From NCBI RefSeq assembly GCF_026240635.1, contig NZ_CP110848.1, positions 2,048,501-2,112,500 on the forward strand: a DNA stretch of 64,000 nt. The letters are read 5' to 3'. The DNA is from Trichothermofontia sichuanensis B231. Its GTDB lineage: Bacteria > Cyanobacteriota > Cyanobacteriia > B231. A program made the position numbers and the translations under genes. Below are positions 5,060 to 54,178 of the stretch, one piece after another. Numbering within the stretch: the first letter of the stretch is position 1; each line of letters starts with the position of its first letter. The notes beneath the pieces are model-generated. The model made no database searches. It saw nothing but the letters and a program-made list of their open reading frames with translations, and had not been told where the DNA came from.

Positions 5060-5082
5060 CGGTTGACTATTGATGGTTGATT

Positions 5083-5189
5083 TATGGTCAATCCAAATAA
5101 GAACGATACAGTTTTTCACTCCTCTCTGCCGCTCTGGGAAAGAGGCTGGGGGTGAGGGGGCTGTTTCAGCCTAAATGGCAATGACTATA
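5083..5189 (+). repeat. family A element, copy A1 (107 bp)
   Basis: The left end is TATGGTCAATCC and the right end is TGACTATA. The centre is a C/G-rich imperfect hairpin. Comparing the two 29-base ends of the family consensus as inverted repeats, 20 of 29 positions match. It lies between ubiX and the LapA-like gene. Confidence 0.8.
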
Positions 5190-7352: not shown

Positions 7353-7522
7353 TTCCCATACCTAATTTACTCAGTACACAGTTAAGGTTTGGATCTCGAT
7401 CCGACCGGCAGCCCTCATCCCCCAACCCCTTCTCTCAATTGGGGAGAAACAAACCCTCACCCGCAGACCGTCCCCATCCTACCCCTGTAAAACTGTACTT
7501 TATAATTGAGGTAAAGGCTGTA
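7353..7522 (+). repeat. family B element, copy B1 (about 170 bp)
   Basis: The right end reads GAGGTAAAGGCTGTA, the inverse of the family left end TACAGCCTTTACCT. The left end is decayed but keeps ACCTAATTTACTCAGTACAC. It fills the gap between the start of the GT2 gene and the end of uvrB, so it may form part of the uvrB 3' region. Confidence 0.7.
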
Positions 7523-22567: not shown

Positions 22568-24007
22568 CTAGGGATCACGGACACACCGAAAGCCCACAAA
22601 AAGTTCACGGACGTGGGGGTAGTACCAATTACGAAATGAGTTACGGAGCACCCACGGTTGGGTTGCCCAACTACCGCCACGCAGCACGCGATGGGCTTGA
22701 TCAAAATAAGCTTGGGAATAGCCCACATAGGGATAGGGTTGAAAACCGGGATAGGGGGCAAACCAACTGGCTGTCCATTCCCACACATTGCCTAATAAGT
22801 CATAACAACCCAAGGCACTTTGGCCGGCTGGATACTGATTTACAGGAGTAGTTCCCCCCACCTGATGTCCGTAATTGCAATGGCTAGCGGTTGGGCTGGC
22901 CTCTCCCCAGGGATAGGGGCGAGCTTGATGGGGATGCGGGGCAGGCGGCGCAAACGGGTCCCAACTGGCTGCTTTTTCCCATTCTGCCTCCGTTGGTAGA
23001 CGCTTACCGACGAACCGTGCATAGGCATCTGCCTCATACCAGCTGACCCCACACACTGGATGGTCTGGCCGCTGTCCAGCGGCGTATAAAGGTCCTCGTA
23101 CACCAGCCTGTTGTAACCACTGCCAACCCGCTTCTGACCACCATCGCCGATCGTCATAGCCGCCCGCAGCGATAAATCGGGCATACTGTCCCCAGGTAAC
23201 GGGATAGCGATCGATCCAGTAGGAAGGTAACGTTACAGTATGGCATCGCTGCTCATTATCCAGGGCCATTGCTGCCTCACTCCCCATCGAGAAGGGTCCC
23301 CCTGGAATTGCCACCATCTCATCTCTCTCATCCCAACAACTCTCCACCGGCAACGTCCCGATATCGCTAGGAGACAGGCTAAGTGCGACAGGCGATGCAG
23401 ATGCCGTTGGGTCAGCGGCTAGGCACAGGAGTTGGTGGACAAGGGTGATCGTTTCCAGATGCTGGCTTTCATGTTGCAGCAGAAACCGTCCCAACGGTTC
23501 CAGTTGGGGAATCGTTGCCGTTGACCAATAGTCCCCGACCTGAGTCCGCACCTCGTTGAGATAGGCGTAGAGGGTGGCGAGGTCGGGTAAATGGACGCGT
23601 TCTGCTTTGGGAAGACCATCCGCCGCAAACAGGGTGTCGTAGGCCGGGTTGAGGGGGGGATGCCCGATACCCCGCTGGAGCAGCCACAGGGCTTCGGTAT
23701 AGGCAATATGGCCGATATGCCAGCCGATCGGGCTGAAATCGGGGTGGGCCTGACGGTCGATTAAGTCTGGATCGATCGTTGCCAGCACCGTCAGGGTCCG
23801 TTGCCGACAGGCTTGCAGCTCGGCCCAGAGATCTTGCAGGCGATCGGCAAGCGGGGCAGGGGGAGTGGGGCAACTTGACAGCAGGGAGGCGGGACGAGCG
23901 ATCGGGGTTCCGTCAGCGGGCACCCCCCTAGGGGGTTGTCCGTGCGTCGATACTTCCCCAGCGCACCTGCCCCCTAGCGGCAATTCAGAGGGAAATGAAG
24001 TGGACAT
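22568..24007 (-). CDS. egtB: EgtB-like sulfoxide synthase (ergothioneine type)
   Basis: EgtB is a non-haem iron enzyme that joins cysteine or gamma-glutamylcysteine to trimethylhistidine with oxygen. The N-terminal DinB-like domain holds the iron ligands, in GWHIGHIAYTEALW and LLQHESQHLETI. The C-terminal FGE/sulfatase-modifying domain has PVTWGQYARFI, VCGVSWYEADAYARFVGKRL, LLGNVWEWTASWFAPYPGF and FRNWYYPHVRELFVGFRC. The first 50 residues are Pro/Ser-rich and not conserved, so the true start may be further downstream. The stop side of egtC overlaps it by 23 bases, which supports one operon. The partner methyltransferase EgtD is not in the window. EgtB or an OvoA-like activity cannot be separated by sequence reading alone. 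Confidence 0.85.
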   Translation of the reverse strand: MSTSFPSELPLGGRCAGEVSTHGQPPRGVPADGTPIARPASLLSSCPTPPAPLADRLQDLWAELQACRQRTLTVLATIDPDLIDRQAHPDFSPIGWHIGHIAYTEALWLLQRGIGHPPLNPAYDTLFAADGLPKAERVHLPDLATLYAYLNEVRTQVGDYWSTATIPQLEPLGRFLLQHESQHLETITLVHQLLCLAADPTASASPVALSLSPSDIGTLPVESCWDERDEMVAIPGGPFSMGSEAAMALDNEQRCHTVTLPSYWIDRYPVTWGQYARFIAAGGYDDRRWWSEAGWQWLQQAGVRGPLYAAGQRPDHPVCGVSWYEADAYARFVGKRLPTEAEWEKAASWDPFAPPAPHPHQARPYPWGEASPTASHCNYGHQVGGTTPVNQYPAGQSALGCYDLLGNVWEWTASWFAPYPGFQPYPYVGYSQAYFDQAHRVLRGGSWATQPWVLRNSFRNWYYPHVRELFVGFRCVRDP

Positions 24008-24773
24008 GCTGATCGGCTCCCACGGTCAAAAGGCTATTCTCGGCAAATGGTACCCAATCTCCCATGAACAGGGGTTCCGATGCAACGACGATCGCCCCTG
24101 GCAAGCAGGGATCATTCTGCAACCAATAGAGCGACGGGGCTGGCGGACGATTACTAAACCGTGAGGCCAACAGGCTTTGACCATCACTTAGGAGCACATT
24201 TGCCTGAACCGTGACATTAGCTTGGGTGGCCAATTCCGCCACCTGCATTAGGGTGCGGTGTAACGCTTCCGTCAGGCTGATTCCCGGTTGGATGAGCCAC
24301 TCATGGAGGAACCCCCCAAACAGGTGCTCTGAGTCGGTACTCCCCTGGATTGCCTGGTAAGCCTGATCACAGAGGCGATCGCGCAGGGGGCGGTAGAGAC
24401 TGGTGCGAAAATTCTCGATAAACCCATTATGGGAAAACAAAAACTGCTGGTACTGGAACGGATGGCAATTACTCAAATCCACCGCTTGTCCCGGCGTGGC
24501 GCTGCGGACATTGGCCAACACACAACCCGACTCAATGTAGCGACTTAGCGCCGGCAGATTAACATCATTCCAAATTGGGAGCGTATGGCGGTAGGTATAG
24601 GGTTCGGTTTGCCGCTGGGGATGATACCAGCCAATCCCAAACCCATCCGCATTCAGCAGGGCCACCTGTAACTCTCGCGGTTGATAGCTCTGCACCACTA
24701 ACGAGTGCTCTGGCTTGTATAGCAAGGTCTCCAGGTTTACCGGAGGACCCAGATACCCTAAGAGGCGACACAT
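23985..24773 (-). CDS. egtC: class II glutamine amidotransferase EgtC
   Basis: This 262-residue Ntn hydrolase has Cys2 as catalytic nucleophile after Met removal (MCRLLGYLG). Conserved parts are NADGFGIGWY, ANVRSATPG, NCHPFQYQQFLFSHNGFIENF and STDSEHLFGGFL. In ergothioneine synthesis EgtC removes the gamma-glutamyl group from the EgtB product. The position just upstream of egtB on the same strand agrees with that role. Its start codon touches the edge of a family B element, so its promoter must lie in or beyond that repeat. Confidence 0.87.
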   Translation of the reverse strand: MCRLLGYLGPPVNLETLLYKPEHSLVVQSYQPRELQVALLNADGFGIGWYHPQRQTEPYTYRHTLPIWNDVNLPALSRYIESGCVLANVRSATPGQAVDLSNCHPFQYQQFLFSHNGFIENFRTSLYRPLRDRLCDQAYQAIQGSTDSEHLFGGFLHEWLIQPGISLTEALHRTLMQVAELATQANVTVQANVLLSDGQSLLASRFSNRPPAPSLYWLQNDPCLPGAIVVASEPLFMGDWVPFAENSLLTVGADQHVHFISL

Positions 24774-25061
24774 ACAGCCTTTACCTAATTGACTCAGTAC
24801 GCAGTTAAGGGTTAGATCTTATGGTCAATCCAAATAAGAACGATACAGTTTTCCACTCGTCTCTCCCGCTCTGGGAGACGGGCCAGGGGTGAGGGTGCTG
24901 TTTCAGCCTAAATTGCAATGACCTAAATTGCAATGACTATAATCCAACCGGCAGCCCGCATCCCCCAACCCCTGCGCCCAAAAAGGGTGAGGGCCGCACC
25001 AGCGGGCTGCCCCTATCCTACCCAAGTAAAACGGTCCTTTATGATTGAAGCAAAGGCTGTA
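24773..25061. repeat. family B element, copy B2, interrupted by A3
   Basis: The left end TACAGCCTTTACCTAATT begins at the egtC start codon. The right end ATTGAAGCAAAGGCTGTA closes at 25061. The middle contains a complete family A element at 24820-24941. Without it, the flanks GTTAGATCT and ATCCAACCGGCAG join to match the uninterrupted family B sequence. Confidence 0.8.
24820..24941 (+). repeat. family A element, copy A3, nested in B2
   Basis: The left end is TATGGTCAATCC and the right end TGACTATA. A 15-base stretch, CCTAAATTGCAATGA, is duplicated inside its right end. It sits at a TA inside the family B element. Confidence 0.85.
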
Positions 25062-25102: not shown

Positions 25103-26338
25103 ATGTTGAGCTTTACCGACAGTCTGAAACAAGTTATAGCCGATGTCAAAATGTCGGGTGGAGCGGTGATAGAGCGCAGCACTCCGCCTTCCGAAGTCCT
25201 TCAGGAATTGAAGGAATTTGCGCTTCGGGGTATCGCAGAAAACAACGCTCCAGCATGGACGCTTTTGGAGTGGTTTACCGAAGGTTTCTTTGATGAGTAT
25301 GTGCGCGTATGTTGGGTTCATCTTCGTAAACTTGGCATATCAGACAACAACTTGATCTATCGTGTTATTACCCAAGTCATAGGGTCACGACTGTCTAGAA
25401 AAGCCACTCGTTGGGATTGTACAGAAAAGGATTTTGAAAAATGCTTGGCTCTCTCTTTAGTTGATGTCTGGGAGCAAATGGGAGATGAGCAAACCCTGAC
25501 CTATACCTTTGCCAAAGAAAGATGGTTAATTGCTTGGGATTATCAAAAATCCTGCTGGAAAACCACAAGTCTTGGAGAGTTGTTACTTGAACTATCTCCA
25601 GTTCAGACAGCAACGTTTGTGCTCAGTATAGATACTCTGTTTAGCACAGGAAAGTGTGACTTTCGTTATATTAGTACAGATGTCTTGAATGAAATCCTTC
25701 ATCCCCAACAGGAAAACTACGATTATCCCCATTTGATACCTCTTCGCCGAGACCTTCTAACTCGATTGGGCATTCTACGAGAACCCGATGATTATGGGCC
25801 TGATCGTATTGAACTAACACCTGTTGGTAGAATTGTGCTTAGCCGAGTCCTGGACAAAGATAATCCCCTCAAAGACACGGCATCTGTATTGATTGCAACG
25901 GAAGAAGTTGGAGATACATTAAAGGGTTCAGTCACTGAGATTAAGGATATTATTTCACTTATCAGTGAGAGTGAATTAGTTGATAATGCAAATCGAGAAT
26001 CTATCAATACGGGTATTCAGCTTTATCTTTCTGGAAAATATCTAGATTCTTTGCGGGTTCTGTATCCTTCAATAGAAGCTATCATCAATAATATGCTAAG
26101 TAGGGCAGGGCAGCAGCCAGAACAACTTAGGGGCTTGGTAGACAAGGCTCGATGGCTAGAACAGAATGGTTGTATTCCGCCCGACGTTTCGAATGCGGTA
26201 GAAATCTTTACTAGCCGAAACAGAGTTTTGCATGGCAACTTCTCTCCACCACAAGACTATGTGTTTCCTTTGTGCTTGCTTGCCTTCCGATACCTACGAA
26301 GGTTGCTGTTAGAGTATCGTGCTGTATCTGAAGGGTAA
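25103..26338 (+). CDS. accessory protein with C-terminal HEPN-like motif
   Basis: This 411-residue protein of unknown function starts at the ATG at 25103, with GGGG four bases upstream. Residues 1-270 are helical and charged with no motif I can name. Residues 300-405 look like a four-helix HEPN/Apea-type domain: INTGIQLYLSGKYLDSLRVL, then YPSIEAIINNML, and finally RNRVLHG at about 372-378. The last motif fits the R-N-x3-H signature of HEPN ribonucleases, which are common in toxin-antitoxin and phage-defence proteins. The base composition is visibly poorer in G+C than its neighbours, and I see no GCGATCGC in it. It is flanked by attC-like half-sites and by repeat elements. Transfer is likely; a defence role is inference. 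Confidence 0.75.
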   Translation: MLSFTDSLKQVIADVKMSGGAVIERSTPPSEVLQELKEFALRGIAENNAPAWTLLEWFTEGFFDEYVRVCWVHLRKLGISDNNLIYRVITQVIGSRLSRKATRWDCTEKDFEKCLALSLVDVWEQMGDEQTLTYTFAKERWLIAWDYQKSCWKTTSLGELLLELSPVQTATFVLSIDTLFSTGKCDFRYISTDVLNEILHPQQENYDYPHLIPLRRDLLTRLGILREPDDYGPDRIELTPVGRIVLSRVLDKDNPLKDTASVLIATEEVGDTLKGSVTEIKDIISLISESELVDNANRESINTGIQLYLSGKYLDSLRVLYPSIEAIINNMLSRAGQQPEQLRGLVDKARWLEQNGCIPPDVSNAVEIFTSRNRVLHGNFSPPQDYVFPLCLLAFRYLRRLLLEYRAVSEG

Positions 26339-30192: not shown

Positions 30193-30304
30193 GGTTCTTC
30201 TGGGATTTTGGGGTAAGCAGTATCAGCAGCTACAAATAAACGATCGCAAATGCTGAGTTTATGGTGGGGGCGCTACGCGCCCCCACCATAAACTCAGAAG
30301 AGCC
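30193..30304 (+). repeat. family C element, copy C1 (112 bp)
   Basis: Ends are GGTTCTTCTGGG and CTCAGAAGAGCC, imperfect inverted repeats. The right half is a 41-base palindrome from GAGTTTATGG to CCATAAACTC with a 5-base loop CTACG. In copies C2-C4, read in the same orientation, the loop is CGTAG. Confidence 0.85.
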
Positions 30305-53637: not shown

Positions 53638-53744
53638 GATAGTCTTTACAATTTAGGCCGAAACGGTGCCCTCATCCCTAGTCTCTCTCCCAGAGCGGGA
53701 CAGGGGAGTGAAGAACTGTATCGTTCTTATTTGGATTGACCATA
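53638..53744. repeat. family A element, copy A10
   Basis: The left end is decayed (GATAGTCTTTACAATT). The right end GGATTGACCATA is intact and shares its last TA with element B4. Confidence 0.75.
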
Positions 53745-53909
53745 CAGTCTTTACCTTAATCATAAAGTGCAGCTTTACCCGGGTAGGATGGGCGCAGTCC
53801 ATAGGTGTGGCTCTCCCCACCTGGGAGAAGGGGTTGGGGGATGCGGGCCGCCGGTCGGATCGAGATCCAAGTCTTAACCGTGTACTGAGTAAATTAGGTA
53901 AAGGCTGTA
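53743..53909. repeat. family B element, copy B4 (167 bp)
   Basis: Ends TACAGTCTTTACCTTAAT and ATTAGGTAAAGGCTGTA are inverted repeats. It sits exactly between A10 and A11. Confidence 0.85.
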
Positions 53910-54004
53910 TAGTTATTTCAGATTAGAAAGAGATGTCTAAGCCCCCTCCCTCTCTAGGGGTTGGAGGTGAGCGTGTTGTTTCAGCCTAAATGGCAATGAC
54001 TATA
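53908..54004. repeat. family A element, copy A11 (97 bp)
   Basis: This copy has the alternative left end TATAGTTATTTCAGATTAG and the standard right end GGCAATGACTATA. Its first TA is the last TA of B4. Confidence 0.8.
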
Positions 54005-54178
54005 ATGCTTTCGGCGGATGTCGCCCTCTATCAAGCTAGGTGCCGAGAAATCGGGGGGCTAGGGCAGCGATCGCGATCTGCAATCGGCTACTCCTCTAAT
54101 CTCTACGACCTAATCTCTATGACCGATCAAGGGTTGAGCCTGCTGATAGTCCCTTAGGGGGAGTCAATCCGGCCAGGA

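What the first reader, a model, noticed from the sequence alone, without database searches (positions are those of the whole stretch)
24773..25061. Family A element nested inside a family B element at a TA
Element A3 splits B2. Removing A3 leaves GTTAGATCT joined to ATCCAACCGGCAG, which matches the uninterrupted B copies (B1, B4) except for TA in place of CG at the join. This dates A after B at this locus and shows that A inserts at TA, as Tc1/mariner and IS630 MITEs do.
Basis: partly seen in the sequence, partly recalled or inferred. Interest (0 to 1): 0.6.

Follow-up and report, generated by a model that had tools for sequence, protein, structure and literature searches.

The report
One mini-transposon inside another, at TA
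A short non-coding jumping element landed inside an older, different short jumping element in a hot-spring cyanobacterium, duplicating a TA as IS630/Tc1-mariner elements do; it is a clean example of a known process.

Summary
A3 is window 24822-24939 (118 bp: a standard 103-bp A plus a 15-bp tandem duplication at its right end), flanked by TA (24820-21 and 24940-41), inside B2 (24775-25059, itself flanked by TA). Removing A3 and one TA leaves a 165-bp B copy.

A is a high-copy element of this genome (406 right ends, 312 left tips). The chromosome length, 4,436,989 bp, equals that published for Trichothermofontia sichuanensis B231. In a sample of 111 copies with both ends, 89 have TA on both sides and 83 are exactly 103 bp. 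Similar tips lie on IS630 (ISY100-like) transposons of other cyanobacteria. This genome keeps only decayed ISY100-like copies. B has the tips of a different IS630, with five copies here.

New here: A repeatedly hit the same TTA|AGG site of B, in both orientations, independently. The nesting at 24822 is at a second site. Ordinary biology; low to moderate interest.

The parts
24773..24774 (.). TA flanking B2 on the left (target duplication of B2); overlaps the ATG of the minus-strand gene 23985-24773
24775..24819 (+). left part of B2 (CAGCCTTTACCTAATTGACTCAG...GTTAGATCT)
   Evidence: matches uninterrupted B copies
24820..24821 (.). left TA of the A3 target duplication
24822..24939 (+). A3: IS630-type MITE, TGGTCAATCCAAATAAG...GCAATGACTA; 103-bp element plus a 15-bp tandem duplication at its right end (about 24908-24937)
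24940..24941 (.). right TA of the A3 target duplication
24942..25059 (+). right part of B2 (ATCCAACCGGCAG...GCAAAGGCTG)
   Evidence: uninterrupted copies
25060..25061 (.). TA flanking B2 on the right
5082..5189 (+). free-standing A copy, TA on both sides, same orientation
7359..7522 (+). B1, uninterrupted B copy whose left outermost tip has diverged (ends GGCTG-TA on the right)
53642..53744 (-). A copy that sits at the flanking TA of B4's right end
53742..53910 (-). B4, uninterrupted B copy

Best explanation
A and B are two different families of miniature, non-coding IS630/Tc1-mariner-type transposons (MITEs) in one thermophilic cyanobacterium. B was here first. An A copy, cut out elsewhere by a transposase supplied in trans, was joined into a TA inside B2, and gap repair duplicated that TA. 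Shown: the nesting, the TA duplication, the constant A ends, the matching empty site in other B copies, and the similarity of A's tips to IS630 transposons. Inferred: that an ISY100-like transposase did it (no intact one was found in this genome), and cut-and-paste chemistry, taken from the in vitro work on ISY100 (PMC2170065).
For: TA|A|TA inside TA|B|TA. 89 of 111 sampled A copies have TA on both sides, 83 of 111 are 103 bp. Exact pre-insertion sequence in 2 of 74 readable uninterrupted B copies. At the other nesting site, removing A plus one TA restores B's ..TTAAGG or ..TAAGG in 4 of the 12 nested copies for which a far A end was found (L197, L081, L002, L137). A-tip look-alikes in other genomes: L073, L074 and L261 are ends of IS630 transposons, L260 is not visibly one. 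31 of 41 examined relatives of the L074 transposase have a right tip within 9 of 29 mismatches of an A tip (41 of the 80 loci were given). Against the consensus IS tip, A's left tip has 21 of 27 and its right tip 20 of 27 identities, each reached by 0 of 100,000 shuffles. The L074 transposase is NCBIfam IS630 and Pfam DDE_3 / HTH_Tnp_IS630. B tips match a second IS630 of this genome (B right against IS left 21 of 30, 0 of 100,000 shuffles).
Against: No intact cognate transposase for A was found in this genome: one full-length but broken ISY100-like copy (1823219-1823783) and a fragment (880006-880191). No other genome searched carries A itself, so no orthologous empty site could be read. 22 of 111 sampled copies lack TA on one or both sides. 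The match of B's left tip to the right end of its supposed IS is weak (13 of 30, reached by 2,301 of 100,000 shuffles).
Confidence: 0.95

Rival explanations
1. The A-in-B composite is itself a mobile unit: A entered B once, and the composite then spread as a B variant.
For: A sits at the same TA of B in many copies (17 places by one pattern).
Against: A is found there in both orientations (9 left-tip-first, 6 right-tip-first at offset 31). In 12 of 12 composites that could be compared, the nearest B relative is an uninterrupted B, not another composite. A3 in B2 is at another position (offset 45).
Confidence: 0.04
2. The arrangement arose by recombination or template switching between the GGGAGAGGGG-type inner palindromes that A, B and C share, not by transposition.
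For: Some loci are mosaics: L126 (B left, A left, B interior), L136 (two B left ends), L128. The inner palindrome is shared between families.
Against: For A3 both complete A ends and a TA on each side are present and B resumes exactly; a switch within the inner palindromes would not give this.
Confidence: 0.02
3. A and B are palindromic regulatory or terminator repeats (REP-like) kept for a host function, and the nesting is incidental.
For: Three A copies fold well as RNA (z -2.7 to -3.4). The composite fills the gap between two divergent ORFs.
Against: TA duplication, constant ends, insertion into other repeats, and tips matching IS630 transposons all say transposon. A host function could come on top but is not shown.
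Confidence: 0.05

Closest known systems
ISY100 (ISTcSa) of Synechocystis PCC 6803, IS630/Tc1-mariner family (PMC2170065: abstract and passages read)
   Same: TA target, duplicated on insertion; cyanobacterial; relatives with a two-frame transposase carry tips like A's
   Different: A is 103 bp and codes for no transposase; A's tips were not aligned with ISY100's own tips here
Bacterial MITEs in general, e.g. Correia, ERIC, Chunjie, Nezha (PMC10969869: passages read; Nezha seen only in its reference list)
   Same: short, non-coding, terminal inverted repeats, many intergenic copies
   Different: the families here were seen only in this genome; their parents are IS630-type; copy number (about 400 in 4.4 Mb) is high but within the known range (711 ERIC copies cited in the review)
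IS1111 inserted in QMITE2 of Coxiella (cited in PMC10969869, passage read)
   Same: one mobile element using another as target
   Different: there an IS recognises a palindrome; here a MITE hits a TA in a MITE

Membership tests
IS630/Tc1-mariner MITE (family A) | TA target duplication | tested here: met
   89 of 111 sampled copies TA on both sides, 104 of 111 TA on the left
IS630/Tc1-mariner MITE (family A) | constant ends forming terminal inverted repeats | tested here: met
   83 of 111 copies exactly 103 bp; both tips match the same IS630 consensus tip, 21 and 20 of 27
IS630/Tc1-mariner MITE (family A) | short and without a transposase gene, many copies | tested here: met
   103 bp; 406 right ends and 312 left tips by pattern, controls 0
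IS630/Tc1-mariner MITE (family A) | ends shared with an IS630 transposon | tested here: met
   other cyanobacterial genomes: L073, L074, L261; similar, not identical
IS630/Tc1-mariner MITE (family A) | intact autonomous partner with the same ends in the same genome (not required of a MITE; it would have named the parent) | tested here: not met
   only broken ISY100-like copies at 1823219 and 880006
IS630/Tc1-mariner MITE (family A) | mobilised in trans by an IS630 transposase | not testable with these tools
   needs a bench assay
IS630-type MITE (family B) | TA target duplication | tested here: met
   58 of 73 sampled copies with both ends have TA on both sides
IS630-type MITE (family B) | ends shared with an IS630 of the genome | tested here: met
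   tip match to the left end of the IS at L059/L061/L062/L063 (18 and 21 of 30), weaker to its right end (13 and 16 of 30)

The most novel reading that the evidence does not exclude
B acts as a landing pad: its TTA|AGG just inside the left inverted repeat attracts A (and once C) more than other intergenic TTAA sites do, so one MITE family grows inside another without harming genes. Seen: 7 of 101 B copies in an unselected list carry A or C there, against an estimated 2.2% of intergenic TTAA sites outside B (binomial p 0.006, resting on a rough estimate).
Probability: 0.35. Interest if true: 0.4.

Novelty: new member of a known kind. Interest (0 to 1): 0.25.

Why it matters
It gives a clear paralogous empty-site proof that a bacterial MITE family follows IS630/Tc1-mariner rules, and an order of events (B before A here, and an 8-bp-duplicating element D after A at another locus). 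The genome is a good place to study how a MITE family persists after its transposase has decayed, and whether MITEs serve as safe landing sites for one another.

Tried and rejected
Rfam scan of the window: no match. Plasmid collection: one record, a 36-base piece only. Pattern scan of named genomes for A: none, own genome possibly left out. A as the MITE of the five-copy IS630 at L059-L063: rejected, tips differ (7 of 27). B as MITE of the ISY100-like group: rejected (11 of 27, reached by 6,441 of 100,000 shuffles). B insertion as a donor of start-codon context: 9 of 121 B left ends abut a TATG, not clearly more than chance. Composite spreading as a unit: rejected. The sample of 111 A copies comes from fetched loci only. 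In the nesting analysis 5 insertions without a recognisable far A end were dropped before the 12 were compared, and 3 of the 12 (L193, L119, L132) do not resume as ordinary B. The 121 B left ends are enriched for nested copies because searched for them; the figure 7 of 101 uses only the list, matched by coordinates. The text of the species paper (PMC10172474) has no 'MITE', 'IS630', 'mobile' or 'insertion sequence'. The listings of the literature searches show no title on these families; of papers, only passages of three were read.

Full report
What is there. The window is part of a single-contig 4,436,989-base genome. That length is exactly the one published for Trichothermofontia sichuanensis B231 (PMC10172474, passages read), a hot-spring cyanobacterium; the published GC of 53.9% agrees with 54.1% in the window. 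The identification rests on length and GC only.

The nested locus. B2 spans 24775-25059 and is flanked by TA at 24773-24774 and 25060-25061. A3 spans 24822-24939 and is flanked by TA at 24820-24821 and 24940-24941. A3 is 118 bp because 15 bp of its right end are present twice; without that it has the family's 103 bp. With A3 and one TA removed, B2 is 165 bp. The composite lies between a minus-strand ORF starting at 24773 and a plus-strand ORF starting at 25103.

Why TA and not CG. In 74 uninterrupted B copies that could be read, this place varies (CG, GG, TG, CA, TA), and 2 of 74 read GGATCTTAATCC, the exact expected pre-insertion sequence. No special event is needed.

Family A. The right-end pattern occurs 406 times and the left-tip pattern 312 times, with 0 control hits. 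Of 111 distinct sampled copies with both tips, 89 have TA on both sides, 104 have TA on the left and 94 on the right; 83 are 103 bp, 14 are 102 and 5 are 101. Outside B, 20 of 81 copies with TA on both sides sit at TTAA, against 6.9% of TA sites in the window. The 83 full-size copies differ by 11% on average, with one identical pair; one of the 83 is 35 mismatches from the consensus, the others at most 14.

Family B. 164 left ends by pattern, control 0. Of 121 distinct sampled left ends, 105 have TA outside; of 73 with both ends, 58 have TA on both sides. 100 uninterrupted copies differ by 26% on average over the first 140 bases, so B looks older than A, with the caution that different lengths and regions were compared.

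Who moved them. A-tip look-alikes were found in 2 of 144 relatives and in 3 of 385 other genomes of the phylum sample; one genome is in both, so there are four distinct places. Three (L073, L074, L261) are ends of IS630 transposons with a transposase in two overlapping frames; the fourth, L260, shows no such gene near it. The transposase is IS630 by NCBIfam and Pfam. Forty-one of its 80 kept relatives in named genomes were checked; 31 of 41 have a right tip within 9 of 29 mismatches of an A tip, and the one non-cyanobacterial locus has 16. In this genome the ISY100-like group is represented by one broken full-length copy and one fragment, so A appears stranded unless another transposase serves it. 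B's tips resemble a second IS630 with five related copies at L059-L063, 96-98% alike where aligned; in the best copy the DDE domain hit spans an in-frame stop, so its activity is uncertain.

Repeated nesting. A pattern for B's left end joined to an A- or C-like tip at its TTA finds 17 places. In the sample of 121 B left ends, 17 have A or C tips at this site (16 at offset 31, one at offset 30 in a B copy with a one-base deletion), in both orientations; one (L193) is degenerate. A3 is at offset 45 and one C-type copy at offset 52. The nearest relative of each of 12 comparable composites is an uninterrupted B, so these are separate insertions. In the unselected list, 7 of 101 carry the insertion, against about 2.2% estimated for intergenic TTAA sites outside B. 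The estimate uses a rough ORF map of the window, so the excess is suggestive only. No B was seen inside an A.

Verdict. Working like IS630/Tc1-mariner is well supported; membership as IS630-type MITEs is met on the tested features, with the lack of an intact partner for A in this genome as the open point. It is a new family of a well-known kind, of modest interest.

Noticed in passing
L160 (G000:C1:3315066-3315866), L131 (3486273, -); window copies of the same family near 30253, 47991, 56260, 59032, 62714: A fourth element, D (ends GGCTCTYCTG..., core CTGAGTTTATGGTGGGGGCGC), is inserted in an A (L160) and in a B (L131) with 8-bp direct repeats (AACGACAC; AATTAGGT). It is not a TA element and is younger than A at that locus.
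   Followed up: partly
window 24908-24937; L015, L132, L101, L147, L249: Short tandem duplications at or near the ends recur in both families (A3 right end, L132 and L101 left end, B left ends in L015, L147, L249). Cause unknown; slippage or faulty end processing are possible.
   Followed up: no
window 53923-54006; L134, L137, L187: A third family, C, has a different left end (TATAGTTATTTCAGATTAG) and shares A's right half. C copies may explain why A-type right ends (406) outnumber A left tips (312).
   Followed up: partly
window 24771-24790: B2's flanking TA overlaps the ATG of the minus-strand ORF 23985-24773; read on that strand, B's tip AATTAGGTAAAGGCTG-TATG puts AGG/AAAGG letters a few bases before the start codon, so the element could supply a ribosome-binding site. 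TATG is not clearly enriched over all sampled B left ends (9 of 121).
   Followed up: partly
L126, L128, L136: Mosaic elements joining parts of A and B at the shared GGGAGAGGGG palindrome, pointing to recombination or template switching among families.
   Followed up: no
window 53642-53744; L187, L249, L255: A copies inserted at the flanking TA of B's right end, giving head-to-tail pairs of B and A.
   Followed up: partly
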